Assembly: GCA_001799995.1 (NCBI GenBank) | Contig: MGUK01000033.1 | Span: 1 to 37,966 of the forward strand | Origin: Elusimicrobia bacterium GWF2_62_30 | GTDB lineage: Bacteria > Elusimicrobiota > Elusimicrobia > Elusimicrobiales > UBA9959 | Length of the DNA stretch: 37,966 bases | Direction of reading: 5' to 3' | Shown: positions 5,121-28,498 of the stretch, piece after piece | Position numbering within the stretch: position 1 is the stretch's first letter | Layout: every line of letters begins with the position of its first letter | Translations under genes and position numbers: made by a program | The notes under the pieces: generated by a model | What the model saw: the letters and a program-made list of their open reading frames with translations, nothing else | What the model was told of the DNA's origin: nothing | The model's database searches: none

Positions 5121-5765
5121 TTAGCCGGCTATTGACGCCAGGACGGCGGCGAGCATGGCGGATTCCGGTTGCGCGCCGATTAGCTCGGTCTTCTCATTCA
5201 CCACTATCTTAGGCACGCCTTCCACGCGGTATTTAGTCGCCATCGCCGGGAATTCCGTGGCTTCCACCATCTCCGCCGTTATATTGGGCGAGGCCAGCGC
5301 CAGCCTGTGCGCCAGCACCACGGCCGCCGGGCAATAAGGACAGGTGGGAGTTACGAATACCTTTATATTCACAGGCTTCGTTATGCCCGCCAGGGCGGCC
5401 AGGGTTTCCGGTGAGAGCTCCTGCGCCGCCGCGGCTGAATTCTTCAGGCCTTCCAGCAGCGAGACGAATTCATAGCCGGAGGGTATGCCCAGGAACCTCA
5501 CCCGGGCGCCGTTCGGGCCTTCCAGCACCGCGGAAGGGCTCTCGGTGATGCCGTAAGCCGCGGCCTTCTCCGTGTCGATGACGCGGTTGTAGACCTCCAG
5601 CTTCAGTTTTGGGGACAAAGAAGCCAGTTCTTTGTAAAAGTCTTCGGCGGTGCCGCAGGTCTGGCAGACCACCATCTCCTTGAAGAACACTATCTTCACC
5701 TCCGAGGCGAGCGCCTCGAGGCGGATCTTTACTTCCTTAGCGGTTTCCTCGTTCATGAAAGTCAT
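5121..5765 (-). CDS. glutaredoxin-like protein disulfide oxidoreductase (PDO type)
   Basis: The 214-residue protein has two tandem thioredoxin folds, the layout of the archaeal/thermophile protein disulfide oxidoreductase family, with redox motifs C34-Q-T-C37 and C142-P-Y-C145. The second half has a thioredoxin-type cis-proline motif (VEGVPKIVVNE). No signal peptide is seen, so it should work in the cytoplasm on disulfides or persulfides. ATG 5765 is preferred because GGGGAGG lies 4 bases before it; ATG 5786 upstream has no such site. A TATAAT-like sequence (minus strand, 5786-5791) is a likely -10. The gene is divergent from the sulfur-responsive operon beginning at 5891, so a role in the same thiol/persulfide chemistry is plausible, though inferred. 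Confidence 0.85.
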   Translation of the reverse strand: MTFMNEETAKEVKIRLEALASEVKIVFFKEMVVCQTCGTAEDFYKELASLSPKLKLEVYNRVIDTEKAAAYGITESPSAVLEGPNGARVRFLGIPSGYEFVSLLEGLKNSAAAAQELSPETLAALAGITKPVNIKVFVTPTCPYCPAAVVLAHRLALASPNITAEMVEATEFPAMATKYRVEGVPKIVVNEKTELIGAQPESAMLAAVLASIAG

Positions 5766-5854
5766 ATAGCCTCCCCGTTGCTTCATTATATATTAGATGT
5801 CCGGCGGACCCCAAAGGTTTCACCGCGCCCCGGAAACTGACAGGCGGGCGGGCC

Positions 5855-5884
5855 TTGACAACTGGTTTAGAATATGCTAAACTA
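5855..5884 (+). promoter_or_regulatory. leaderless promoter overlapped by an operator-like dyad
   Basis: A perfect -35 TTGACA (5855-5860) is followed after 17 bases by TAAACT (5878-5883). Transcription would start at about 5890-5891, right on the ATG of the ArsR gene, and no ribosome-binding site precedes that ATG, so the mRNA is probably leaderless. A perfect dyad GTTTAG-N6-CTAAAC (5865-5882), one mismatch longer on each side, covers the -10. That is the usual placement of an ArsR-family autorepression site. Confidence 0.75.
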
Positions 5885-5890
5885 CTATAC

Positions 5891-6193
5891 ATGAACAAAA
5901 CCATGCTCGCAAAAGCCGACGGGATAGCCGGGATGCTGTCCTGCATCGCCCACCCTTTCAGGCTGATGATAATCTGCATGCTGCTCAAGCGCGAAATGTT
6001 CGTGCATGAGCTGATAGAAAAGCTCGGGACGACCAAGGGGAACATCTCCCAGCACCTGCGCGTGCTGGCCGACCGGGGCCTGATCCAGAAGCGCCGGGAC
6101 GGCAACCGCATCTTCTACAGCATAAAAGACCCCAACCTGGCCGACCTTATAGGACGTATAAAGAAGCTTTATTGCCCCAATTTGGAATTTTAG
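5891..6193 (+). CDS. ArsR-family repressor, candidate persulfide sensor (SqrR/BigR-like)
   Basis: This 100-residue winged-helix protein has the ArsR recognition region (KLGTTKGNISQHLRVLADRGLIQKRRDGNRIFYSI). It has three cysteines: C18, C29 and C95. C29 and C95 are 66 residues apart, the same spacing as the sensing pair in SqrR (C41/C107) and BigR (C42/C108), and they sit in similar contexts (IICML in helix 2; KKLYCP near the C-terminus). Those proteins release DNA when the cysteines form a polysulfide link. The metal-binding ELCVCDL motif of classical ArsR is absent. ATG 5891 is chosen because the upstream in-frame TTG (5855) is the -35 box. It is the first gene of the sulfur operon and probably represses it. 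ArsR family is certain; persulfide sensing is inferred. Confidence 0.88.
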   Translation: MNKTMLAKADGIAGMLSCIAHPFRLMIICMLLKREMFVHELIEKLGTTKGNISQHLRVLADRGLIQKRRDGNRIFYSIKDPNLADLIGRIKKLYCPNLEF

Positions 6194-6202
6194 GAGGAAA
6201 CT

Positions 6203-6448
6203 ATGGACCTTACCCAGATAAAAGCTGCAAAAACGGTGGACGCGCGCTCGATGGCCTGCCCGGGGCCGCTGCTGGAAGCCAAGAAAGGCATAGCCGGCGT
6301 TCCCGTAGGCGGCGTGCTGGAAATACAGTCCGGCGATAAGGGCAGCCGCGAAGATATCCCCGCCTGGTGCGGCAAAGTCGGCCACGAATACCTGGGCGTG
6401 CTCGAGCGCGACGGCTATGACAGCCTCTTCGTCACCCGCAAAAAGTAA
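6203..6448 (+). CDS. TusA-family sulfur carrier protein
   Basis: The 81-residue protein has the hallmark SirA/TusA motif, with the sulfur-accepting cysteine C19 in ACPGPLLEAKK, and a second cysteine C56 (PAWCGKVGH) also found in family members linked to energy metabolism. TusA proteins carry a persulfide on the first cysteine and hand it to DsrE-like or other acceptors. It has a strong AGGAGG site just after the ArsR stop, so the two are cotranscribed. In sulfur-oxidising and Hdr-like loci TusA sits beside DsrE proteins, as here (DsrE-like gene at 11812). Confidence 0.93.
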   Translation: MDLTQIKAAKTVDARSMACPGPLLEAKKGIAGVPVGGVLEIQSGDKGSREDIPAWCGKVGHEYLGVLERDGYDSLFVTRKK

Positions 6449-6461
6449 GTTCTGGTCGAGC

Positions 6462-6594
6462 GGCCCGGCGGGGGGATATGGGCCCGGCGGGCACGCTATC
6501 GGCCACACCGTGGCCGCGCTCCCTCTCGGCCTCGGCGCTACGCAAGCCTCGGCCTGCGAGACGGCCCGCCGAACCCATATCCCTCCGTCGGGCC
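6462..6594. repeat. 133-bp imperfect palindromic element between tusA-like and mvhD-like genes
   Basis: Arms at 6462-6492 and 6564-6594 pair over 31 positions with 4 mismatches; both carry the GGGATATGGG block. Inside is a smaller perfect hairpin, CGGCCAC-acc-GTGGCCG (6500-6516), and repeated GCCTCGG motifs. It fills most of the 173-base gap (6449-6621), the only long gap in the operon. It could be a MITE/REP-like insertion, and as RNA it would form a large hairpin that might partly terminate or process the transcript. No protein is supported here. Confidence 0.85.
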
Positions 6595-6621
6595 TAGCGG
6601 GCACTTGATAACTTTTAGCGT

Positions 6622-7002
6622 ATGACTCACCGAAAAATATTAATTATCACCACTAACCACAGCTCTTACCCCGGGGCGGACGCCGTGGGACAGGCCAGGA
6701 TGGGGTACGACGCCAATACCTATATCATACGCGTCCCGGACCCCGTCATGTTCCCGGAGGATTTCTACCTCAACGCTTTCGACAAAGGCATAGGCGGCAT
6801 CATCATCATGTCCTCCGGCTCCGACTGCCCCTACGAAGGTGCCTATGAGCGGCTGTCCAAACGCGTAGCGCGCGTCTACGAGCAGATGAAGGCCAAAGGC
6901 ATTGCGGCCAACCGGCTCAAGCTCACCACCATCTGCACCGTCTGCCGCGCCGCCTTCCTTAAAGAGATCTCCGAAATGCAAAAGGCGGTGGCCTCGGTAT
7001 GA
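6622..7002 (+). CDS. MvhD-like protein (hydrogenase/heterodisulfide reductase iron-sulfur delta subunit family)
   Basis: The 126-residue protein matches the MvhD / QmoB C-terminal family: an NAFDKGIGGIIIMSSGSDCPYEGAYERLSKRVARVYEQMKAKGI core followed by the RLKLTTICTVC segment, with C69, C105 and C108 as likely cluster ligands. In methanogens MvhD passes electrons from hydrogenase to HdrA; in sulfate reducers the domain is fused to the C-terminus of QmoB. Here it is a separate gene, overlapping the next gene by ATGA, so it is probably a subunit of the same complex. The start lacks a strong ribosome site; the preceding palindromic element may matter. There is no hydrogenase gene in the window. 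Confidence 0.85.
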   Translation: MTHRKILIITTNHSSYPGADAVGQARMGYDANTYIIRVPDPVMFPEDFYLNAFDKGIGGIIIMSSGSDCPYEGAYERLSKRVARVYEQMKAKGIAANRLKLTTICTVCRAAFLKEISEMQKAVASV

Positions 7003-8288
7003 GCGATATAGAGAGAATTGAAGCGGACGCGCTCGTGGTGGGCTCCGGCATAGCCGGCCTGCAGGCCGCGCTGGACCTGGCCGACCAGGGTTACAGCGTG
7101 GCCATCGTGGAAAAAGCGCCCAGCATCGGCGGCAAGATGATAAGCCTCAGTAAGGTGTTTCCCACGCTGGACTGCGCCAGCTGCATCACCACCCCGCGCA
7201 TGGCCTCGGTGTCTCATCACCCGCGCATAACGACCCTCACCTACAGCACCGTGGACGCCATCAAGCGCGAGGGTAAAACTTTCACCGCCGCCGTCACCCG
7301 CAAACCGCGCTATATCGACGAAAAAGAATGTATCTCCTGCAAGCGCTGTGAAGAGGCTTGCCCCGTTTTCCTGCCCGACGAGTACGAACAGGGCCTGGGC
7401 GCCAAGAAGACCATCTCCATCCCCTTTACCAACGCCATTCCCCAGCTGCCCGTGATGCATCCCGAGCACTGCATACGCTGCGGCGCCTGCGCCCGCGCCT
7501 GCCCCAAGGACTGCATAGAATTCCTGCAGGAGCCGGCCCCGGTAGAGATCAAAGCCAAGGCCGTGATCCTCGCCACCGGATACGAGACCACGCCGATGAC
7601 CGCCAAGAAGCAGTACGGCCTGGGCAACCTCCCCAATGTCATTTCACCCATGGCCGCCGAGCGCTTGCTGGCGCCGCACGGTCCCTATGGCCGCGTGCTG
7701 CGCCCGTCCGACGGCAAAGTGCCCGGCTCCATCGCCTACGTGCAGTGCGCCGGCTCGCGCGACAAAAGCATCGGCGTGCCGTACTGCAGCCGCGTCTGCT
7801 GCATGTACGCCATCAAGCAGGCCATCCTGCTGTCCGGCTCGCTGCCCATAGCGGACATCACCATCTATTACATGGACATCCGCGCCTTCGGCAAAGGCTA
7901 CGAACAGTTCTACAACAACGCCAGGGCCATGGGTATCAGCTTTGTTAAAGCCAAAGTGGCGCGCGTCACCGAGGACGCGGAGCACAACCCGGTAGTGCGC
8001 ATAGAGCGCCAGGAGGGGACCTCCGCCCCCGAGGAAGTGAAGCACGACCTGGTGGTGCTCTCCCAGGGCCTGCTGCCCGGCTGCGACGTGACGAAGTTCT
8101 CTCTGGGAGTGGAACTCAACGATTTCGGCTTCGTGCAGCTCTCCGACGAGACCATCTCTTCCGCCGTCACCGCCGGTGCGGGCGTGTTCGCCGCCGGCGT
8201 GGTCAAAGGCCCGCGCGACATCCCTGACTCGGTGGTGGACGCGGGTTCCGCCGCCATGGAAGCCGCGGCGTATATAAGGAAACTGTGA
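6999..8288 (+). CDS. HdrA/QmoA-like FAD iron-sulfur protein
   Basis: The 429-residue protein begins with an FAD-binding Rossmann motif (G15-S-G-I-A-G20, then the SIGGKM segment) and has the HdrA-type DCASC motif near residue 61. Two ferredoxin-type [4Fe-4S] motifs follow: C111/C114/C117/C121 and C158/C161/C164/C168. The second half has the HdrA/Qmo YVQCAGSRD...PYCSRVCCMYAIKQA segment. Length fits QmoA (about 410-430 residues) rather than full HdrA (about 650). QmoA is a flavoprotein subunit of the membrane Qmo complex, which exchanges electrons with the quinone pool. The gene overlaps both neighbours by a few bases, so translation is coupled. Family is sure; the QmoA label is by length and context. 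Confidence 0.9.
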   Translation: MSDIERIEADALVVGSGIAGLQAALDLADQGYSVAIVEKAPSIGGKMISLSKVFPTLDCASCITTPRMASVSHHPRITTLTYSTVDAIKREGKTFTAAVTRKPRYIDEKECISCKRCEEACPVFLPDEYEQGLGAKKTISIPFTNAIPQLPVMHPEHCIRCGACARACPKDCIEFLQEPAPVEIKAKAVILATGYETTPMTAKKQYGLGNLPNVISPMAAERLLAPHGPYGRVLRPSDGKVPGSIAYVQCAGSRDKSIGVPYCSRVCCMYAIKQAILLSGSLPIADITIYYMDIRAFGKGYEQFYNNARAMGISFVKAKVARVTEDAEHNPVVRIERQEGTSAPEEVKHDLVVLSQGLLPGCDVTKFSLGVELNDFGFVQLSDETISSAVTAGAGVFAAGVVKGPRDIPDSVVDAGSAAMEAAAYIRKL

Positions 8289-10078
8289 TGGAAGATAAAA
8301 TAAAAGAAGAAGCTTCCAGGGACAATTACCGGCAGGAGCCGAAGGTCGGGGTGTACGTCTGCCATTGCGGCGGCAACATCTCCGACATCATCGACGTCAA
8401 AGCCGTGGCCGCCGCGCTGGCCAAGTACCCCGGCGTGGTCGTGGCTCGCGAGTACGCCTTTATGTGCTCCTCCAACGGGCAGGACCTGATAGCCGACGAC
8501 ATAAAGAACCTGGGCGTAAACCGCACCGTAGTGGCCGCCTGCTCGCCCAGCCTGCACGAACTCACTTTCCGCGGCGTGCTGCAGCGCGCCGGCGTTAACC
8601 CCTACCTGCACGAGCACATCAATATCCGCGAGCAGGCCAGTTGGGTGCACAAGGCCGACCATGCCGGCGCCACCGCTAAAGCCATCAAGCTGGCGCAGGC
8701 CGGCGTAGAAAAAGTTCTCCGCAAGGACGCGCTCAACGCCATCCGCGTGGCGGCCGAGCAGCGCGTGGCCGTGATAGGCGGCGGCGTGGCCGGGATGCGC
8801 GCGGCACTGTCAGCCGCCGGCAAGGGGCTGGAAGCCGTTATCCTGGAGAAGGCGCCGCGCCTGGGCGGCAAGCTGCTGGAGCTCGGGAAGATGTACCCGT
8901 CCGGGGAAGAGGGCCCGGCGGTAGCGGCTAAGCTGGAAGCCCTGGTGCGCGCGGAGAAAAAGATCACCGTGCATACCGGCGCGGGGATAGAATTCGTCAG
9001 CGGCTTCGTAGGGAATTTCGTGGTAAATTTCAAAAACCCCGACGGCCGGATGGAACAGGTGAAGGCCGGCGCCATCGTCATGGCCACAGGCTACGAGCAT
9101 TATAAGCCCCATAACGGAGAGTTCGGCTACGGCGAGGCCGCCAACGTGGTCACCCTGCCAGAATTCCTCGCGTTGATGAAGAAATCTCCCGCCGGCAGGC
9201 TGGCGCTGGCCGGCCAGGAGATAAAGAGCCTGGCCCTGATACACTGCGTGGGCTCGCGGCAGGTGGAGGGCGTGCATAAGCCGCAGGCGGACGGCAAGGT
9301 GAACGATTACTGCTCGCGCGTCTGCTGCTCCTCCGCGCTTTACGCCGCCAACCAGGTGAAAGAAAAATACCCCGGCGTGCGCATCTACGACATCTACCGG
9401 GACATCCGCACCTACGGCATGCAGCATGAGGAGTACTACGACAAGGCCTCGAAAGACGGCGTGCTGTTCTTGCGCCACAACGAGGCCGATCAGCCGGTAG
9501 TGACCTCCGACCGCACCGGCCACTTGGTGAAGGTGAAGGACGTACTGACGTGGGGAGAGGAGCTGGAGCTGAAGGCCGACCTGATCGTGCTGGTCACCGG
9601 CATGATGCCCTCCGATATTTCCCTCATAAGATCCCAGATGAAGCTGCCGGCCAGCGCCGATCGTTTTCTGCAGGAAGTGCATCCTAAGCTGCGCCCCGTG
9701 GAGCTGGCCAATTCCGGCATCTTCGTGGCCGGCACCGCCCAGTACCCCATGGACGTGCCCGAGGCCATGGCCTCCGCCGGCACCGCCGCCGCCAAGGCGG
9801 CCATCCTGCTGGCAGAGCCGGATATCCCGCTGGAGCCTTTCGTGGCCGTGGTGGACGAGCATAAATGCACCGGCTGCGGCCTGTGCCCCGCCGAGTGTTC
9901 CTACGACGGCGCGCTTATGATGACGGAGAAGAACGGAAAAAAACTCGCCCAGGTGAATCCAGCTTTGTGTAAAGGCTGCGGCGCCTGCGTGGCGGTCTGC
10001 CCTACCCGCGCCATCAACGTGGCAGGCTGGACGCTGGACCAGTTCGACGCCATGGTAGCGGCGATAGCCAAGGAATGA
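8288..10078 (+). CDS. HdrA/QmoB-like FAD iron-sulfur protein
   Basis: From ATG 8288 (TGATG overlap with the previous stop) the protein has 596 residues. It has the HdrA N-terminal domain (VCHCGGN at C25/C27, FMCSSNGQ, AACSPSLHE, NIREQASWVH), an FAD motif (G164-G-G-V-A-G169), a CVGSRQ ... YCSRVCCSSAL segment and two C-terminal ferredoxin motifs (C527/C530/C533/C537 and C561/C564/C567/C571). This corresponds to QmoB without its C-terminal MvhD domain, which is instead encoded separately at 6622. Electrons would pass between its FAD and the QmoA- and QmoC-like partners. It might also be called a short HdrA; no HdrB (CCG-domain) gene accompanies it. Confidence 0.92.
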   Translation: MEDKIKEEASRDNYRQEPKVGVYVCHCGGNISDIIDVKAVAAALAKYPGVVVAREYAFMCSSNGQDLIADDIKNLGVNRTVVAACSPSLHELTFRGVLQRAGVNPYLHEHINIREQASWVHKADHAGATAKAIKLAQAGVEKVLRKDALNAIRVAAEQRVAVIGGGVAGMRAALSAAGKGLEAVILEKAPRLGGKLLELGKMYPSGEEGPAVAAKLEALVRAEKKITVHTGAGIEFVSGFVGNFVVNFKNPDGRMEQVKAGAIVMATGYEHYKPHNGEFGYGEAANVVTLPEFLALMKKSPAGRLALAGQEIKSLALIHCVGSRQVEGVHKPQADGKVNDYCSRVCCSSALYAANQVKEKYPGVRIYDIYRDIRTYGMQHEEYYDKASKDGVLFLRHNEADQPVVTSDRTGHLVKVKDVLTWGEELELKADLIVLVTGMMPSDISLIRSQMKLPASADRFLQEVHPKLRPVELANSGIFVAGTAQYPMDVPEAMASAGTAAAKAAILLAEPDIPLEPFVAVVDEHKCTGCGLCPAECSYDGALMMTEKNGKKLAQVNPALCKGCGACVAVCPTRAINVAGWTLDQFDAMVAAIAKE

Positions 10079-10079
10079 T

Positions 10080-10376
10080 ATGGCAAATACAGCTAAACTC
10101 GCCGAACAATTAAAGAAGCTTAACGAGCTGCGCGGCCCGGTGCCGCAGGCTTTGCGCGACCGGGTGGCCGCGCAGAACAAGGCGCAGAAAGCCATCCTGG
10201 ACGCGCTCAAAGAAGGCCCCAAAACGGCGCCGGAGCTGGCGGCGGCCGCGGGCCTGCCGCAGGACAAGGCGCTCTGGTACGTGGCCGCCCTGCGTAAATA
10301 CGGCAAACTCTCCGACGTGGCGGGCCGGGGCGAGTACCCCAAGTATGAGCTGAAGGCCGGGGAGGGGAAACAATGA
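10080..10376 (+). CDS. small winged-helix-like protein within the Hdr/Qmo operon
   Basis: This 98-residue protein has a charged N-terminal helix (KLAEQLKKLNELRGPVPQALRDRVAAQNKAQKAILDAL) and then a winged-helix-like region (EGPKTAPELAAAAGLPQDKALWYVAALRKYGKLSDV...YPKYEL). It starts 1 base after the QmoB-like stop, with AAGGA as ribosome site, and overlaps the QmoC-like gene, so it is made with the complex. It may be a regulator or an assembly/structural factor. It has no cysteine, so it does not carry a cluster. Function not known to me. Confidence 0.8.
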   Translation: MANTAKLAEQLKKLNELRGPVPQALRDRVAAQNKAQKAILDALKEGPKTAPELAAAAGLPQDKALWYVAALRKYGKLSDVAGRGEYPKYELKAGEGKQ

Positions 10377-11473
10377 AGGTGAACCCGGAACTCATAGACG
10401 AGATAAAAAAATACGGCGCCTTCGACATTTCCGCGTGCTTTAACTGCGGCAATTGCACCGCCGTCTGCCCGCTGTCGAAAGAAGACGCCTCCTTTCCGCG
10501 CAAACTGATCCGCGCCGGGCACGTGGGTATGGAAGAGAAGATCGCTTCCGCCATAGAGCCCTGGCACTGCTACTACTGCGGCGAATGCTCTGCCACCTGC
10601 CCGCGCGAGGCCCAGCCCGGCGAGTACATGATGGCCCTGCGCCGCTACCTGATAGCCAAGTACGACATTACCGGCCTGTCCGCGATCTTTTACAAGAACG
10701 GCTGGCTGCAGAGCTGGCTGGCCCTGGGCCTGCTGGCGGCGTTCTACTGGCTCTACAGCTCCTACACCGGGGATTTCGGAGCGCTGGCCGGCAAGATAGA
10801 GCTGGCCTTCCCGGTCTACGTCACCATCGCGCTGGGCGGATACGTGCTGAACATGTACCGCTACGCGATAGTAAAACCGCTGGGCGGCATCAAGGCCTCG
10901 CTCAAGCCGGCGCATATTTACGAGACCTTCGTGCACGGCTTCACGCAGAAGAACTTCAACGGCTGCGAGGAAACCGACTGGACCCGCTGGATAGCGCATT
11001 TGCTCGTCATGAGCGGCTATGTGCTGACCCTCCTTATCTCCAACCTGCACCTGCTCGAACCGCTGAATAAACAATACACGCCGTTCGGTCCCGTAAGCCT
11101 GCTGGTGTGGTACGCCGGCCTCGCCATTATCGTGGGCGGCGGCGTCATGTCGCTGCGCCGGGTGTTCAAGAGCGCGGAGTCGTCCAAATTCTCGCACCCC
11201 AGCGACTGGCTGTTCGTGATCACCATGTTCCTGATAGGCGCCAGCCTGCTGTTCACTCATTATCTGAACGTGGCCTACGGTCCCGCCGACCCGCTGCTCG
11301 ACAAAGTGTACCGCCTCAACATCGCCATCGAGACGGTGTGGATCCTGCTCATCGTGCCGTTCACCAAGTGGATCCACATCTTCTTCCGCCCGCTGGCGGC
11401 CTATTTTCAATACGTAAAAAAGGAGGCTGAGGCCGGCACGGCTTTCAGTCTGCAGCTTGGAGGAACGAAATGA
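10373..11473 (+). CDS. QmoC-like membrane subunit (HdrC-HdrE fusion)
   Basis: The 366-residue protein has an HdrC-like N-terminus with two [4Fe-4S] motifs (C22/C25/C28/C32 and C66/C69/C72/C76), followed by a cytochrome-b-type membrane domain with about six hydrophobic helices (roughly residues 110-350) and several histidines suited to haem or quinone sites, including AHLL, NLHLLEP, THYLN and WIHIFF. This two-part layout and length match QmoC (about 380 residues), the quinone-reactive subunit of Qmo. It would link the cytoplasmic HdrA-like subunits to the menaquinone pool. Overlaps by ATGA with the genes on both sides. Confidence 0.93.
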   Translation: MKVNPELIDEIKKYGAFDISACFNCGNCTAVCPLSKEDASFPRKLIRAGHVGMEEKIASAIEPWHCYYCGECSATCPREAQPGEYMMALRRYLIAKYDITGLSAIFYKNGWLQSWLALGLLAAFYWLYSSYTGDFGALAGKIELAFPVYVTIALGGYVLNMYRYAIVKPLGGIKASLKPAHIYETFVHGFTQKNFNGCEETDWTRWIAHLLVMSGYVLTLLISNLHLLEPLNKQYTPFGPVSLLVWYAGLAIIVGGGVMSLRRVFKSAESSKFSHPSDWLFVITMFLIGASLLFTHYLNVAYGPADPLLDKVYRLNIAIETVWILLIVPFTKWIHIFFRPLAAYFQYVKKEAEAGTAFSLQLGGTK

Positions 11474-11802
11474 AAAAAGCCGGAATAATACGCTGTCAGC
11501 AGACCGAGGATATCTGCCCGGGCACTACGGACTTCAAGTTCGCACAGCTGGGCAAGGGCGCTTTCGCGGAGACCGGGCCGGTGGAGATAACCGCTTTCGT
11601 TTCCTGCGGCGGCTGTCCCGGCAAGCGGGCGGTCGTCCGCGCGGAGGAGATGGTTTCGCGCGGGGTTGAGATTATCGCCCTGGCCTCGTGCATCAAGAAC
11701 GGCAATCCTCTGGGCTTCCCCTGCCCGCACGCGGAAGTAATGAAGGCCGCGATAATAAAGAAGGTCGGCGACAAAGTGAAGATACTCGATTACACGCACT
11801 AA
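11470..11802 (+). CDS. CGGC-domain protein
   Basis: The 110-residue protein has the defining C46-G-G-C49 motif (SCGGCPGKR) and other conserved cysteines: C9 (IIRCQQT), C16 (DICPGT), C74 (ASCIKNG) and C84 (FPCPH). CGGC proteins are small, found mainly in anaerobes, and are predicted to bind a metal or cluster; no reaction is established. Its ATGA overlap with the QmoC-like gene makes it part of the operon. With so many cysteines it could serve as an electron or sulfur relay between the membrane complex and the DsrE-like protein downstream, but this is inference. Confidence 0.85.
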   Translation: MKKAGIIRCQQTEDICPGTTDFKFAQLGKGAFAETGPVEITAFVSCGGCPGKRAVVRAEEMVSRGVEIIALASCIKNGNPLGFPCPHAEVMKAAIIKKVGDKVKILDYTH

Positions 11803-11811
11803 GGAGACCAT

Positions 11812-12363
11812 ATGGCAGACATTAAAGAACTGGAAGCGCAGGTGGCGGCCCTGAAGGCCGACGTGGAGAGCCTGAAGGCCAACGCGCCGCAGGACAAGCT
11901 TTCGATGGTGGTGATGAGCGGGGACATGGATAAGCTCCTGGCTTCTTTCATTATCGCCACCGGCGCGGCGGCGATGTACGAGAAGGTGGTGATGTTCTTT
12001 ACGTTCTGGGCCATCCCGGCGCTGAAAGACCCGAATAAGACCGTCTCAAAAGACGTCGTGTCCAAGATGTTCGAGCTGATGCTGCCCAACGGCGAGGGCG
12101 GCACCAAGCTGAGCAAGATGCACATGGGCGGCATGGGCAAGGCCATGATCAAGTCCATCATGAAGAAGCACAACGTGATGAGCCTGGGCCAGCTTATGAA
12201 GACCGCGGCCGACTCCGGCGTGGAGATCTACGTCTGCCAGATGAGCATGGACCTGATGGGCTACAAGATGGAAGAGATGATAGATTACCCGAACCTCAAG
12301 AGCGCCGGCGTGGGCAAGTTCCTGGCCGAGGCCGGCAGCAGCAAAGCGTCGCTGTTTATATAG
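11812..12363 (+). CDS. DsrE/DsrF/DrsH-like sulfur-transfer family protein
   Basis: The 183-residue protein starts with a short coiled coil (KELEAQVAALKADVESLKAN) and continues with the DsrE2-type fold: LSMVVMSGDMDKLLASFIIATGAAAMYEKVVMFFTFWAIPAL, a GGMGKAMIKSIMKKHNV segment, and the key cysteine C142 in YVCQMSMDLMG. DsrE2 proteins bind persulfide on this cysteine and exchange it with TusA. It has an AGGAG site and is the last gene of the operon, before a terminator. Pairing with the TusA-like gene at 6203 in one operon is typical of sulfane-sulfur handling loci. Confidence 0.92.
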   Translation: MADIKELEAQVAALKADVESLKANAPQDKLSMVVMSGDMDKLLASFIIATGAAAMYEKVVMFFTFWAIPALKDPNKTVSKDVVSKMFELMLPNGEGGTKLSKMHMGGMGKAMIKSIMKKHNVMSLGQLMKTAADSGVEIYVCQMSMDLMGYKMEEMIDYPNLKSAGVGKFLAEAGSSKASLFI

Positions 12364-23872: not shown

Positions 23873-26800
23873 TTATTCCCCGGTATAGCCCAGCAGCTCT
23901 TCGCTCTCGCCGGCCGGCGCGGCCTTGCGCGCGCGGATCTCGTGCGCCTTGTCCTTGAAGGCCAGGAAATACAGCACAGGCACCGCCACGCGCGACAAGA
24001 GCGTGGCCGCTATCTGCCCCGAGATCAGCGAGATGGCCAGCCCCTGGAAGATGGGGTCGAACAGGATCACCCCTGCCCCGACGATAACGGCCAGGGCGGT
24101 GAGCAGCATGGGCCGGAACCGGACCACGCCGGCCTCTATCACGGCCTCGCGCAGTTCCATGCCCTCGCGCACCTTCAAGTTGATGAAGTCCACCAGTATG
24201 ATCGAGTTCCTGACCACGATGCCGGCCGAGGCGATGAAGCCTATCATCGACGTGGCGGTAAAGAACGCGTTCATGCCCCAGTGCGCCGGGATTATGCCGA
24301 TGAGCGCCATGGGGATGGCCGCCATGATGATGAACGGCGTAATGAAGTCCTCGAACCAGGCCACTACGAGGATATAAATGAGCAACAACACCATGGCGAA
24401 AGCCAGGCCCAGGTCGCGGAACACCTCGTAGGTGATATGCCACTCGCCGTCCCACTTTATGGCGGTTTCGGCTGAGCCGGCGGGCTGGCGCGTGAAATAC
24501 TGGTTGATCTTCACGCCGCGCGCGGCGGCCAGGGCGTCTATGTCCTTTTTTAGGTCGAGCACCGCGTACACGGGGCTTTCGGTGCCTCCGGCGATGTCGG
24601 CCGTAACGTAAATGACGCGCTGCAGGTTCTTGTGGTAGATGGGCTGATTCTCAAGGCCGGTCTCCGCCCGCACGAAGCTGGCCATGGGGATGGCCGTGCC
24701 GTTGGGCGAGAAGAACTTGATCTCCTTGAGCGTGGAGAGCGCGCGGCGCTTCTCCGGCGACAACCGCAGGCGGATGTCCACCGCCTCGCTCTCTTCCTCT
24801 ACGTGGGCCGAGTCGATGTCGGCGCCGGACAGCGACAACGCCGCGGTCTGCACTATCTCCGCGGCCGCCACGCCGTTGAGCGTGGCTTTCTGCCGGTCCA
24901 GCACCAGGCGGGTGATGGGCTGGTCCCCGGGAATGTAGGAGTCCACGTCCACTATGCCCTCCGTCTTGGACAGCAGCGTCTTGATGTCCTCGGCCAGGGC
25001 CTTCTGGTTCCTGGGATTGGGGTCGAACACCTCTATGAGCATGGTGGCCATCACCGGCGGGCCAGGGGGCACTTCGGCCACCTGCACGCGGGCCTTATAG
25101 CTGTCGGCTATCTTTTTGAGCGGCCCGCGCACGGCCAGGGCTATGTCGTGGCTCTGGCGCTTGCGGTCGTGCTTGTCGGAGAGGTTCACCTGGATGTCGG
25201 CCTGGTACGGCGCCTGGCGCAGGAAGTAATGGCGCACCAGCCCGTTGAAGTTGTACGGGGCGCTGGCGCCGGCGTAGACCTGCAGGTCGCGCACCTCGGG
25301 CACGGTGGCCAGGAAGGCCGCCATCTCGCCGGCCGCGCGCTCGGTGCGGGTTATCGACGAGCTTTCCGGCATGTTGATGACCACCTGGAACTCGTTCTTG
25401 TTGTCGAAAGGCAGGGTTTTGAAGATCACCAGCCGCCCGGCCACCATGGCCAGCACGGCCGCCAGCAGGCCGGCGGTGAACAGCAGGAACTTTTTGCCGT
25501 TGGCGGGCTCGTAGATGAGCTTCTTCATCAGCGCGCGGTAGAGGCTGTCCAGGCGCCCTTCCTTGTCGTGGGGGCAATGCTCCGGCGGAAAGCGCTTTAC
25601 CACTTTGGCGTACAGCCAGGGCGTGAAGGCGAAGGCCACGCCGAGCGAGAACAGCATGGCCACGGACGCGCCTATGGGGATAGGGCGCATATACGGGCCC
25701 ATCATGCCGCTGACGAAGGCCATCGGCAGGATGGAGGCGATGACGGTCCAGGTGGCGAGTATCGTCGGGTTGCCTACTTCGTCCACGGCGTTGAGGATAT
25801 TGCGCAGCAGCGACCTGTTGCCGTTGAGCATGCAGTGGCGGTTGATGTTCTCTACTACCACGATGGCGTCGTCGACGAGGATGCCGATGGAGAAGATGAG
25901 GGCGAACAGGGTGATGCGGTTAAGCGTGTAGCCGTAGAGGTAGTAGACCAGCATGGTCAGGGCCAGCGTAACGGGGATGGCCACCAGCACCACGGCCGCT
26001 TCGCGCAGCCCCAGCGTCAGGGCGATGAGCAGCGTCACCGACAGCGTGGCCAGCAGCATGTGGTAGATGAGCTCGTCGGATTTTGCCTTGGCCGTTTCGC
26101 CGTAGTTGCGGGTGACGGTGAGGTTAATGCCGTCGGGGATCTCGTGCCCTGTCATAGCCTCCACCTTGGCCAGCACGGCGCGGGAAACTTCGGTGGCGTT
26201 GGCGCCGCGGCGCTTGGCCACGGACAGCGTGACCGCGGGGTTCTCGCCGGCGGCTTTTACCGCCGAGGCGGGGCCGCTCATCATCCGGACGGAGCGCTCC
26301 TCCTCGTCGGGGCCGTCCTTTACCTTGGCCACTTCGGAGAGCCTTACGGGGCGGCCGTCGTAAACGCCCACCACGATGTTCTCCAGGTCCTGCGCGGTGC
26401 GGATAAAGGCGTCGGTCTCGGCCAGCAGCTTGGTGTCGCCGTCGTTGTACTGCCCGGCCGGCAGGCGGGCGTTGGACATCTTTATCATGCCGGCCAGCAT
26501 CTGCGGCGTCAGGCGGTGGCGCGCGAGGGCGCCCGGGTCGAAATGCACGATGAACTGGCGCTTGTGGCCGCCGATGATGCGCGTCTCGGAGACGTCCTGC
26601 ACGGCGTTGAGCTCGGTCTGGATGCGGGCGGCGGCGCGGCGCAGGCCGTAGGCGTCCCTGCCCTCGCCCCACAGGGTAAGCGCCAGCACCGGCACGTCGT
26701 CGATGGCGCGGAACTTTATCAGCGGTTCGCCGGCCCCGCGCGGGAAGATGTCCTTGTTGTCCAGCGTCTTGGTGTAGATGCGGTTGGCGGCGGCCTCGGG

Positions 26801-27133
26801 CTCAGTGCCCACCTTGAAGCGCACGGTGAACATGGCGAAGTTGGGCTGGGCCATGGAATAGATAAATTCCACGCCGGGGATCTCCCAGAGTTTGCGCTCG
26901 CCCACTTCCACCAGGTGCTTCTCGATTTCCTGCGGGGTGGCGCCGTAGAACGGCACCATGATGTCGAACATGGGCACGTTTATCTGCGGTTCTTCCTCGC
27001 GCGGCAGCTTTATGGTGGAGAAGACCCCCAGCAGGATAAAGGTGATGATTAATATCGGCGTTAGGCGGGAATTGATGAAGGCTTCGGCCATCCTGCCGGC
27101 CATCCCGTATTTTCTGATCTTTTCATTAGTCAT
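23873..27133 (-). CDS. RND-family efflux transporter permease
   Basis: The 1086-residue protein has the full RND layout: an N-terminal helix (LTPILIITFILLGVFSTIKLP), two large periplasmic loops and twelve helices in two sets. The proton-relay pair D421-D422 in TM4 (GILVDDAIVVVENINR) is present. PREEEPQINVP after TM1 is typical of the HAE1/AcrB-related branch. It drives export of an unknown substrate through TolC. The TolC-like gene lies 21 bases upstream in the same operon, but a membrane-fusion (adaptor) gene, normally between or beside these, is missing. Downstream are the DUF2892 and Cys-rich genes, which hints at a metal or sulfur link. Confidence 0.95.
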   Translation of the reverse strand: MTNEKIRKYGMAGRMAEAFINSRLTPILIITFILLGVFSTIKLPREEEPQINVPMFDIMVPFYGATPQEIEKHLVEVGERKLWEIPGVEFIYSMAQPNFAMFTVRFKVGTEPEAAANRIYTKTLDNKDIFPRGAGEPLIKFRAIDDVPVLALTLWGEGRDAYGLRRAAARIQTELNAVQDVSETRIIGGHKRQFIVHFDPGALARHRLTPQMLAGMIKMSNARLPAGQYNDGDTKLLAETDAFIRTAQDLENIVVGVYDGRPVRLSEVAKVKDGPDEEERSVRMMSGPASAVKAAGENPAVTLSVAKRRGANATEVSRAVLAKVEAMTGHEIPDGINLTVTRNYGETAKAKSDELIYHMLLATLSVTLLIALTLGLREAAVVLVAIPVTLALTMLVYYLYGYTLNRITLFALIFSIGILVDDAIVVVENINRHCMLNGNRSLLRNILNAVDEVGNPTILATWTVIASILPMAFVSGMMGPYMRPIPIGASVAMLFSLGVAFAFTPWLYAKVVKRFPPEHCPHDKEGRLDSLYRALMKKLIYEPANGKKFLLFTAGLLAAVLAMVAGRLVIFKTLPFDNKNEFQVVINMPESSSITRTERAAGEMAAFLATVPEVRDLQVYAGASAPYNFNGLVRHYFLRQAPYQADIQVNLSDKHDRKRQSHDIALAVRGPLKKIADSYKARVQVAEVPPGPPVMATMLIEVFDPNPRNQKALAEDIKTLLSKTEGIVDVDSYIPGDQPITRLVLDRQKATLNGVAAAEIVQTAALSLSGADIDSAHVEEESEAVDIRLRLSPEKRRALSTLKEIKFFSPNGTAIPMASFVRAETGLENQPIYHKNLQRVIYVTADIAGGTESPVYAVLDLKKDIDALAAARGVKINQYFTRQPAGSAETAIKWDGEWHITYEVFRDLGLAFAMVLLLIYILVVAWFEDFITPFIIMAAIPMALIGIIPAHWGMNAFFTATSMIGFIASAGIVVRNSIILVDFINLKVREGMELREAVIEAGVVRFRPMLLTALAVIVGAGVILFDPIFQGLAISLISGQIAATLLSRVAVPVLYFLAFKDKAHEIRARKAAPAGESEELLGYTGE

Positions 27134-27154
27134 CGGTCTTCACGTCCTTTCGGG

Positions 27155-28498
27155 TTATTTTAAAGCGAGCTTGGCGGACATTTCCGCCACGGCATTCTCG
27201 TCCAGCAGTTCGGCGGCCAGCAGGGCCTGCGCGTGGTAGAGGTGGAGCTTGTAGAGGGTCTCGTAATAGGCCGCTTCGGCCTGCAGCACCGAGGCTTCGG
27301 CGCGCAGCACTTCCAGCACGCTCTGGCGGCCCTGCCTGTAGAGGGGCCGGAACAGCTCCAGGGACTGGCTGGCTTTTTCCAGGGTCTCTTTGGCAACCGG
27401 CAGGCTTTCCTTGGCGGCCAGGTAGCCGCTTGCGGCCTCCAGCGCTTCGGTGTCCGCCCGGCGGCGGGCCTCGTCCAGCCGGCTCCTGGCCATGGCCGAC
27501 CGTGCGGAGGCCGCGTCCTTCTTCGCGAAATAGGCCGGGTCGCCCAGCAAGACGGTAAGCTTTATCCCCACCAGCCGGCTGCCCCTGAAATCCGACAGGC
27601 TTTCAGAATTGGTCTCCCAGCTGCCAAAGGCTTCCACCACCGGCAGGTACGAGCCCGACTGGACCTTTTCCTCTACTGCGCTTAACTCGGTCATTTTCTG
27701 CATGGCCTTTATGTCGAGCCTGGCATCCCTGACCTCCGAACCTGACGGCAACTCGGTATAGTCCGACTCGGCCAACTTGCCGGCGGCTTCCGGGGCGGCG
27801 GAGGGATCCTGCCCCAGCAGCAGGGCCAGCTTTTCCTTTTCCAGCTTCAGGGCGCTGTCCCAGTTCAGGCTGTAGCCCCTGAGCGTGGAGAGAATAGCCT
27901 CCGCGCCGTAATAGTCGGAGCCCAGCACCATGCCCTTGTCCTTTAGCATCTGCGCCGTTTTGAGCTCTTTGCGGGCCGAGGCCTCGCTGGCGGCGGCAGC
28001 GCGCGCCAGTTCCGAACGCAGCAGGACGGTGAGCCACTGGTAAACCAGTTTAAAGGTGATGCCCGAGCGCGCCCTGCCGCGGCCCGCTTCGGCCGCTGCT
28101 ACGCCGAGGCCGCCCATCTTTATGGCGCCCGCCAGGGAGCCGCCGGTGTACAGGGGAATGCCTGCCTCAATGCCGCCCATGTAATTGCGGGCGGGTCCGG
28201 GATCGTTTATGGAGGCCATCGAGGCCATGCTGAAGGTGCCCTGCTTCATGGCCGTGGCGAAGGCATAGACCGGGTCGGTGCCGTCGGTATACATGCCTTT
28301 GAGCTTCAGCCCGCCGAACCGCGACAGCTTCGCGGCGGCCAGCCCGGCTTGGGCGCCTGTGACGCGCTCGGCCTCTTCTTTAAGGATATTGTCTTCTTTA
28401 AGTCCGGCCTGCACGGCCTGCTCGAGGCTTACCGTGGCCGCCTGCAGCGGTTGGGCCAGCAGCAAAGCTAAAAATATCAGGGTGTTTCTATTGTCCAT
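27155..28498 (-). CDS. TolC-family outer-membrane efflux protein
   Basis: The 447-residue protein has a signal peptide (MDNRNTLIFLALLLAQPLQAATV) and the TolC two-repeat helical/beta pattern: VSLEQAVQAGLKEDNILKEEAERVTGAQAGLAAAKLSRFGGLKLKG, GIEAGIPLYTGGSLAGAIKMG, LVGIKLTVLLGDPAYFAKKDAASARSAM and LYRQGRQSVLEVLRAEASVLQAEAAYYETLYKLHLYHAQAL. GGAGG precedes ATG 28498. First gene of the operon that continues with the RND permease. Its upstream region carries the fragment of the dispersed repeat. Confidence 0.92.
   Translation of the reverse strand: MDNRNTLIFLALLLAQPLQAATVSLEQAVQAGLKEDNILKEEAERVTGAQAGLAAAKLSRFGGLKLKGMYTDGTDPVYAFATAMKQGTFSMASMASINDPGPARNYMGGIEAGIPLYTGGSLAGAIKMGGLGVAAAEAGRGRARSGITFKLVYQWLTVLLRSELARAAAASEASARKELKTAQMLKDKGMVLGSDYYGAEAILSTLRGYSLNWDSALKLEKEKLALLLGQDPSAAPEAAGKLAESDYTELPSGSEVRDARLDIKAMQKMTELSAVEEKVQSGSYLPVVEAFGSWETNSESLSDFRGSRLVGIKLTVLLGDPAYFAKKDAASARSAMARSRLDEARRRADTEALEAASGYLAAKESLPVAKETLEKASQSLELFRPLYRQGRQSVLEVLRAEASVLQAEAAYYETLYKLHLYHAQALLAAELLDENAVAEMSAKLALK

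What the first reader, a model, noticed from the sequence alone, without database searches (positions are those of the whole stretch)
5891..12363. Persulfide-regulated Qmo/Hdr-like module with TusA, DsrE-like and CGGC proteins
One operon links an ArsR repressor, TusA, an MvhD-like protein, QmoA-, QmoB- and QmoC-like subunits, a winged-helix protein, a CGGC protein and a DsrE2-type protein. Qmo normally works with AprAB in sulfate reduction, and sHdr systems use HdrB and lipoate-binding protein. Here none of those partners is present, but both sulfur carriers are. I infer a quinone-coupled complex that oxidises or reduces protein-bound sulfane sulfur, a hybrid of the two known systems. This is my best candidate for an undescribed system.
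Basis: partly seen in the sequence, partly recalled or inferred. Interest (0 to 1): 0.85.

Follow-up and report, generated by a model that had tools for sequence, protein, structure and literature searches.

The report
Persulfide-controlled Qmo-like operon with sulfur carriers
In poorly known bacteria (Elusimicrobia and some other lineages) a conserved block of genes joins two small sulfur-carrying proteins to an electron-transfer complex related to one used in sulfate reduction, which suggests a so far undescribed way to move electrons to or from protein-bound sulfur.

Summary
The operon is real and where stated: ArsR-TusA-MvhD-QmoA-QmoB-wHTH-QmoC-CGGC-DsrE2. The seven core genes are complete, in this order, in 21 of 25 Elusimicrobiota family-f1 genomes; 3 are cut by contig ends, 1 has a broken DsrE2; CGGC is in 12 of 25. 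Fifteen loci of other lineages hold the same seven. aprA and dsrA: 0 of 25 over cut-off. ArsR resembles persulfide sensors BigR/SqrR, both cysteines aligned; a palindrome inside its promoter is conserved. Three aprA-bearing genomes carry this cassette besides a canonical-type qmoABC, so it is a separate system. TusA-DsrE2 kin are fused to CoA-disulfide reductase-rhodanese in 30 of 30 loci sorted there, and sit beside DsrMK-like genes in 4 of 4 Spirochaetota loci. I read it as a persulfide-induced redox module, most likely a reductase, for sulfur on TusA/DsrE2. 'Quinone-coupled' is doubtful in this lineage: menD 0 of 22, MqnA/D 2 of 22, HemB 5 of 25, and a QmoC histidine replaced by Asn. New variant of the Qmo/Hdr kind; function untested.

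The parts
5855..5884 (+). promoter TTGACA-17-TAAACT (with TG) holding a palindrome, the likely ArsR operator (5863-5884)
   Evidence: 10 of 12 promoter match; one site, none expected in 100 shuffles; core GTTTAG-N6-CTAAAC exact upstream of ArsR in 20 of 22 f1 loci (L036 and L055 differ) and in L095 and L085; not seen in the 8 other loci tested there (L082, L089, L099, L106, L107, L119, L129, L156)
5891..6193 (+). ArsR/SmtB repressor of BigR/SqrR (persulfide sensor) type
   Evidence: best PDB matches BigR 3pqj and SqrR 6o8k, both sensor Cys aligned; below the NCBIfam BigR cut-off
6203..6448 (+). TusA sulfur carrier (CPGP motif)
   Evidence: PF01206 6.8e-18; CPGPLL in 25 of 25 rows
6622..7002 (+). 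stand-alone MvhD/FlpD-like protein with a different cysteine set (C69, C105-x2-C108)
   Evidence: PF02662 2e-18; C105/C108 in 25 of 25 cassette rows, 0 of 2 hydrogenase-linked rows
6999..8288 (+). QmoA/HdrA-like FAD and 4Fe-4S subunit
   Evidence: HdrA2 model 8e-135; the only two matches to it in the own genome lie in this operon
8285..10078 (+). QmoB/HdrA-like subunit, 597 aa, without the fused MvhD tail of canonical QmoB
   Evidence: canonical rows 713-752 aa; tree
10080..10376 (+). small winged-helix protein between QmoB and QmoC
   Evidence: model and fold search
10373..11473 (+). QmoC-like: HdrC-type Fe-S domain plus cytochrome-b-like membrane domain; H209 and H335 kept, Asn at 316
   Evidence: NF038018 1e-38; 37-row alignment
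11470..11802 (+). CGGC-domain protein, optional member
   Evidence: PF08821 2.9e-27; found in 12 of 25 f1 loci
11812..12363 (+). DsrE2-family sulfurtransferase, Cys142 in CQMSMDLMG
   Evidence: PF13686 3.6e-45; Cys142 invariant in 11 rows of A1

Best explanation
A persulfide-induced redox module for protein-bound sulfane sulfur. ArsR senses excess persulfide through two cysteines and leaves its operator (inferred from homology and the conserved palindrome). Sulfane sulfur is loaded on TusA (CPGP cysteine) and exchanged with DsrE2 (Cys142) (inferred from the families). The QmoA-QmoB-MvhD flavin/Fe-S core, tied to the membrane by QmoC, then most likely reduces the carrier-bound persulfide to sulfide, the job that a fused CoA-disulfide reductase-rhodanese probably does for the same TusA-DsrE2 pair in Clostridia and Anaerolineae. 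Electrons could come from ferredoxin or NAD(P)H (one clade has a GltD-like NAD(P)H module inserted in QmoA) and, where quinone and haem are made, from quinol. In most Elusimicrobiota the quinone link is lost or rests on salvaged cofactors. Shown: gene content, order, conservation, palindrome, no AprA or DsrA over cut-off in 25 genomes. Inferred: substrate, direction, donor, operator function.
For: Seven core genes complete in 21 of 25 f1 genomes and together in 15 loci of other lineages; BigR/SqrR-like ArsR with both Cys aligned and conserved palindrome in the promoter; aprA 0/25, dsrA 0/25 over cut-off; coexistence with canonical-type qmoABC in G349, G351, G361; CoADR-rhodanese-TusA-DsrE2 in one open frame in 30 of 30 loci L110, L112-L140, and DsrE2-TusA-DsrM-like-DsrK-like in 4 of 4 Spirochaetota loci; CoADR-rhodanese gene near the Bacteroidota cassette L101 (Pfam) and thioredoxin-, thioredoxin-reductase- and OsmC-like neighbours in L097/L099 (named by eye); Fer4_20 plus Pyr_redox_2 module in QmoA of L087 (Pfam), same split-hit pattern in L088, L091, L094, L096 and L156.
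Against: No HdrB-type subunit, so no known site for persulfide reduction; direction cannot be read from sequence; DsrMK-like modules serve either direction in other organisms (recalled); quinone and haem synthesis genes lacking in most f1 hosts; sensor Cys pair kept in only 11 of 15 ArsR rows; in the QmoC tree the cassette is not one group, and its QmoB group has only 76/61 support, with long-branch warnings; G361 cassette has a small DsrE, not DsrE2, beside it; patchy presence, 18 of 32 genus genomes.
Confidence: 0.5

Rival explanations
1. Oxidative use: TusA/DsrE2 hand sulfane sulfur to the Qmo-like complex, which oxidises it toward sulfite and passes electrons to a quinone pool, as sHdr is thought to do.
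For: TusA and DsrE proteins feed sHdr and rDsr in sulfur oxidisers (recalled; passages of PMC13293266, report TusA to DsrE transfer in vitro); rows of other lineages and L055 keep the QmoC His.
Against: No HdrB match in the own genome; quinone and haem synthesis genes missing in most f1 hosts; a fused partner of the same carriers is a CoA-disulfide reductase. lbpA and terminal oxidases were not searched.
Confidence: 0.2
2. A cytoplasmic, membrane-docked flavin-based electron bifurcase (ferredoxin, NAD(P)H, persulfide) with no quinone or haem role at all in Elusimicrobiota.
For: HemB 5/25, MqnA/D 2/22, menD 0/22 over cut-off; Asn for His in 14 rows of one clade; QmoC membrane part under purifying selection in one pair; NAD(P)H module in a sister clade.
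Against: H209 and H335 are invariant in 37 of 37 QmoC rows, which suggests at least one haem; f1 row L055 keeps the third His; UbiA-family genes in 24 of 25.
Confidence: 0.15
3. Sulfur supply for biosynthesis: TusA/DsrE2 provide sulfur for tRNA, cofactors or Fe-S clusters and the Qmo-like complex supplies electrons for that.
For: TusA has such a role in E. coli (recalled); no AprA or DsrA in these genomes.
Against: Persulfide-sensor-type repressor and palindrome; patchy presence, 18 of 32 genus genomes, is odd for a housekeeping supply.
Confidence: 0.12
4. Ordinary Qmo of a sulfate or APS pathway whose AprAB is missing from the assemblies.
For: QmoABC-like architecture; own genome 84.5% complete.
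Against: aprA 0 of 25 over cut-off, 17 of the 25 at least 90% complete and at most 5% contaminated; coexistence with canonical-type qmoABC; different MvhD cysteines.
Confidence: 0.03

Closest known systems
QmoABC (quinone-interacting complex of APS reductase)
   Same: QmoA-QmoB-QmoC order, HdrA-type flavin subunits, QmoC with HdrC plus cytochrome-b-like part
   Different: no AprA; window QmoA 33-36% and QmoB about 29% identical to the three canonical-type sets; QmoB without fused MvhD; extra TusA, DsrE2, wHTH and ArsR; QmoC below the NF038018 cut-off
Type II Qmo of Neukirchen et al. 2023 (PMC10504309)
   Same: HdrA-like QmoAB with QmoC, reported also in organisms without Apr/Dsr, role stated as open (passages)
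   Different: the passages seen do not mention a TusA/DsrE2/wHTH link; whether this cassette falls in that clade was not tested
sHdr sulfur oxidation system
   Same: HdrA-like subunit with TusA and DsrE family carriers (recalled)
   Different: no HdrB; a QmoC-like membrane subunit instead
YTD cluster of sulfur disproportionators
   Same: tusA and a dsrE gene together
   Different: has yedE and chp genes, the latter read as DsrEFH type II in PMC13293266, and no Qmo gene is named in it (passages of PMC9751629, PMC12998232, PMC13293266)
CoADR-rhodanese-TusA-DsrE2 fusion (Bacteroides fragilis BF638R_0572 type)
   Same: same TusA-DsrE2 pair, with an ArsR gene within the stretch in 18 of 30 loci; loss raises diamide sensitivity in B. 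fragilis (PMC6158253, passages)
   Different: electron module is a CoA-disulfide reductase instead of Qmo/Hdr

Membership tests
QmoABC (canonical) | AprAB partner in the genome | tested here: not met
   aprA TIGR02061 0 of 25 over cut-off; aprB not searched
QmoABC (canonical) | QmoB with fused MvhD-like tail | tested here: not met
   597 aa against 713-752 aa; MvhD is a separate gene
QmoABC (canonical) | QmoC over NF038018 cut-off | tested here: not met
   133.8 against 300 bits
QmoABC (canonical) | groups with canonical QmoB and QmoC | tested here: not met
   3 canonical-type rows form one group at 100/100 in both trees, apart from the cassette; root by midpoint, long-branch warnings
Type II Qmo (PMC10504309) | QmoAB closer to HdrA than to canonical QmoAB | tested here: inconclusive
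   HdrA2 model is the best hit, but no tree with type II references
sHdr | HdrB subunits | tested here: not met
   own genome no match; 0 of 25 over cut-off, strong sub-cut-off match in G149
sHdr | lipoate-binding protein LbpA | not tested
Persulfide-sensing ArsR (BigR/SqrR) | two sensor cysteines | tested here: met
   both aligned in the window protein; pair kept in 11 of 15 rows
Persulfide-sensing ArsR (BigR/SqrR) | over the NCBIfam BigR cut-off | tested here: not met
   77.4 against 155 bits
YTD cluster | yedE gene beside tusA/dsrE | tested here: not met
   no such domain among the operon proteins; rest of the genome not searched
DsrE2 | DrsE_2 domain and conserved Cys | tested here: met
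   154 bits over the cut-off of 25, Cys142 invariant; NCBIfam SulfCarrDsrE2 56 bits, under its cut-off of 210

The most novel reading that the evidence does not exclude
A separate, widely shared class of Qmo/Hdr complex whose substrate is protein-bound sulfane sulfur on TusA/DsrE2, persulfide-induced, with a re-made MvhD cysteine set and, in most Elusimicrobiota, working in hosts that make neither quinone nor haem themselves, perhaps as a flavin-based bifurcating persulfide reductase. It would give a function to part of the Qmo complexes found without AprAB.
Probability: 0.3. Interest if true: 0.85.

Novelty: new variant of a known kind. Interest (0 to 1): 0.68.

Why it matters
Qmo-like complexes in organisms without sulfate-reduction genes are a stated open question (PMC10504309, passages). 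A conserved cassette with sulfur carriers, a persulfide-type repressor and a promoter palindrome turns that into a testable proposal, in bins titled Elusimicrobia, Margulisbacteria, Armatimonadota/Fimbriimonadales, Silvanigrella, Acidobacteria, Bacteroidales/Paludibacter and Deltaproteobacteria (bin names may be wrong in places). It also warns that a Qmo annotation alone should not be read as sulfate reduction, and shows one carrier pair linked to three different electron modules.

Tried and rejected
Canonical sulfate reduction set aside. YTD cluster considered and set aside. Viral origin: a scan of viral contigs with DsrE2 found no relative; 62 plasmid records match DsrE2, all under 60% identity, some annotated as CoA-disulfide reductase. 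The wHTH search of PDB sequences gave only weak hits. A first context script missed nearly all DsrE2 genes because they lie in longer fused frames; redone with tblastn. The protein disulfide oxidoreductase gene 5121-5786, divergent from ArsR, gave no match in the f1 stretches, so it is not counted as a part. sat, aprB, dsrB, DsrC, YedE, lbpA, PF02754, hydrogenases and terminal oxidases were not searched in the genomes. Literature: 10 of 10 searches used. Qmo-like + TusA + heterodisulfide reductase: 0 papers; persulfide + ArsR + TusA + Qmo: 0; QmoABC + TusA + DsrE: 18 papers, of which I saw passages of 5 (PMC9751629, PMC12998232, PMC10504309, PMC13293266, PMC13047784). Passages of PMC6158253 were seen too. 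All other papers were seen in listings only. So 'not described' means: not found in these searches of an open library that lacks most subscription papers and preprints.

The CPGPLLE count was mended to CPGPLL, and the palindrome counts now tell the misses.
Full report
What is there. TusA has a CPGP motif; DsrE2 has Cys142, invariant in 11 aligned rows; the 98-aa protein is a winged helix by model. The own genome (2.91 Mb, 84.5% complete; the window is its contig 33) has two matches to the window QmoA at E up to 1e-10, both in this operon.

Conservation. QmoC-like matches at E up to 1e-20 occur in 29 of 340 phylum genomes: 25 in family f1 (18 of 32 of the own genus) and 4 in more distant families of the class. 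Some of these matches were flagged with one stop codon; a check of the frames finds QmoC open over its length in all 25 f1 loci. The order ArsR-TusA-MvhD-QmoA-QmoB-wHTH-QmoC-(CGGC)-DsrE2 has its seven core genes complete in 21 of 25; L039, L043 and L058 are cut by contig ends and agree as far as they go; L055 has a fragmentary DsrE2 and its ArsR-like genes further off. CGGC is found in 12 of 25. The 4 class-level loci show QmoC-QmoA-QmoB, with MvhD seen in 2, and no TusA or DsrE2 match.

Other lineages. A genome-contig scan with the DsrE2 alignment found 261 relatives and kept the best 80, so rarer or more distant arrangements are not sampled. My sorting of the 80: 23 of the Elusimicrobiota group (15 of them, L061-L075, not re-run for synteny); 15 loci of other lineages with all seven core genes (L082, L084, L086-L090, L094-L097, L099-L101, L111; DsrE2 of L100 is cut by the contig end; L097, L099 and L101 have DsrE2 first; L089 has MvhD before TusA; L111 is titled a Planctomycete and may be misbinned); 3 cut by contig ends (L083, L091, L098); 4 Spirochaetota loci with DsrM/DsrK-like genes; 30 loci with one open frame CoADR-rhodanese-TusA-DsrE2; and 5 others without a visible Qmo module (L085, L092, L103, L104, L109; L103 ends just after TusA).

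Separate from canonical Qmo. aprA is over cut-off in 0 of 25 f1 genomes, with one sub-cut-off match; dsrA in 0 of 25, with two. Among 23 genomes of other loci aprA is over cut-off in 3, G349, G351 and G361. All three hold a canonical-type qmoABC: G349 and G351 on the aprA contig (judged by position and by tree; not run against the qmoC model), G361 on another contig with QmoC over the model cut-off (423.8 bits). They also hold the cassette: L094, L096 and L156. In G361 the gene after QmoC is a small DsrE, and the DsrE2 (48% identical) lies elsewhere (L109). Canonical QmoB is 713-752 aa with a fused MvhD-like tail; cassette QmoB is 571-613 aa apart from one of 646 aa and one row entered in part. 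In the QmoB tree the 26 cassette rows form one group with weak support (76/61) and the 3 canonical rows one at 100/100. In the QmoC tree the 4 class-level rows nest among the cassette rows, so the cassette is not one group there. MvhD of the cassette lacks the N-terminal cysteines of the 2 hydrogenase-linked MvhD rows and has C105-x2-C108 in 25 of 25 rows against 0 of 2.

Regulation. The ArsR is nearest to BigR and SqrR among solved structures, with both sensor cysteines aligned; it scores below the BigR equivalog cut-off. The pair is kept in 11 of 15 ArsR rows; L156, L087 and L099 lack both and L082 lacks one. The palindrome core GTTTAG-N6-CTAAAC is exact upstream of ArsR in 20 of 22 f1 loci, and in L095 and L085; it was not seen in the 8 other loci tested. 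In the window it lies within the promoter match. Binding is inferred.

Partners of the carrier pair. In all 30 loci L110 and L112-L140, TusA and DsrE2 end a CoA-disulfide reductase-rhodanese frame; B. fragilis has the same four-domain protein (passages). In 4 of 4 Spirochaetota loci they sit before a NarI/DsrM-like and a CCG/DsrK-like gene, 2 of them with an ArsR gene near. QmoA of L087 carries an inserted GltD-like module (Fer4_20, Pyr_redox_2), with the same split-hit pattern in L088, L091, L094, L096 and L156. The common denominator is electron exchange with sulfur on TusA/DsrE2; the fused partner is a reductase by family, while DsrMK-type modules can serve both directions (recalled).

Cofactor problem. 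Of 22 cassette-bearing f1 genomes searched (G129, G139 and G145 were left out), menD is over cut-off in 0 (12 of the 28 genomes in that call, the own one included, have sub-cut-off matches, probably other ThDP enzymes) and MqnA/D in 2, G140 and G149. HemB is found in 5 of 25, not in the own genome. UbiA-family genes are over cut-off in 24 of 25; in G107 the protein is closest to DHNA prenyltransferase models but below their cut-offs, and in G107 and the own genome it sits beside a polyprenyl synthase (2 of 4 fetched loci annotated). In 37 QmoC rows His209 and His335 are invariant; the place of window Asn316 is His in 23 rows, among them f1 row L055, and Asn in 14: 12 Elusimicrobiota-group rows, L082 and L111. 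That these histidines bind haem is inferred from the NarI-type pattern (recalled). So the quinone link may be lost, or rest on salvage.

Literature. YTD clusters as described have no Qmo genes (passages). Neukirchen et al. report type II Qmo also without Apr and Dsr and call its role open (passages). The searches listed under Tried and rejected found no paper that describes this cassette.

Verdict. A real, conserved cassette with a persulfide-sensor-type repressor; a new variant of Qmo/Hdr complexes; most likely a reductase for carrier-bound sulfane sulfur, with substrate and direction unproven.

Noticed in passing
L046 9001-16515 and L047 1802-9265 (class-level Elusimicrobia G212, G186): QmoC-QmoA-QmoB-MvhD followed by [NiFe] hydrogenase small and large subunit genes (PF01058, PF00374): a Qmo-hydrogenase set without TusA/DsrE2 nearby. 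The other two class-level loci were not annotated.
   Followed up: partly
L167 7339-9146 (own genome contig 84) and L169 6954-8742: Polyprenyl synthase next to a UbiA-family (MenA-like in G107) prenyltransferase in genomes without MenD over cut-off or MqnA/D: possible salvage of a naphthoquinone precursor.
   Followed up: partly
L087 1827-4535; same pattern in L088, L091, L094, L096, L156: QmoA with an inserted GltD-like NAD(P)H module; small extra DsrE genes and, in 4 loci, a cytidylate-kinase-like gene between QmoC and DsrE2.
   Followed up: partly
window 5121-5786: Protein disulfide oxidoreductase (TIGR02187, over cut-off) divergent from the ArsR gene; no match beside the cassette in the f1 stretches.
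   Followed up: partly
L105-L108 (Rectinema subterraneum and other Spirochaetota): DsrE2-TusA-DsrM-like-DsrK-like genes, in Rectinema (titled a strain, not a MAG) behind an ArsR gene: a parallel system that may be culturable.
   Followed up: partly
window 23876-28498: RND efflux pump and outer membrane channel genes, ordinary.
   Followed up: no
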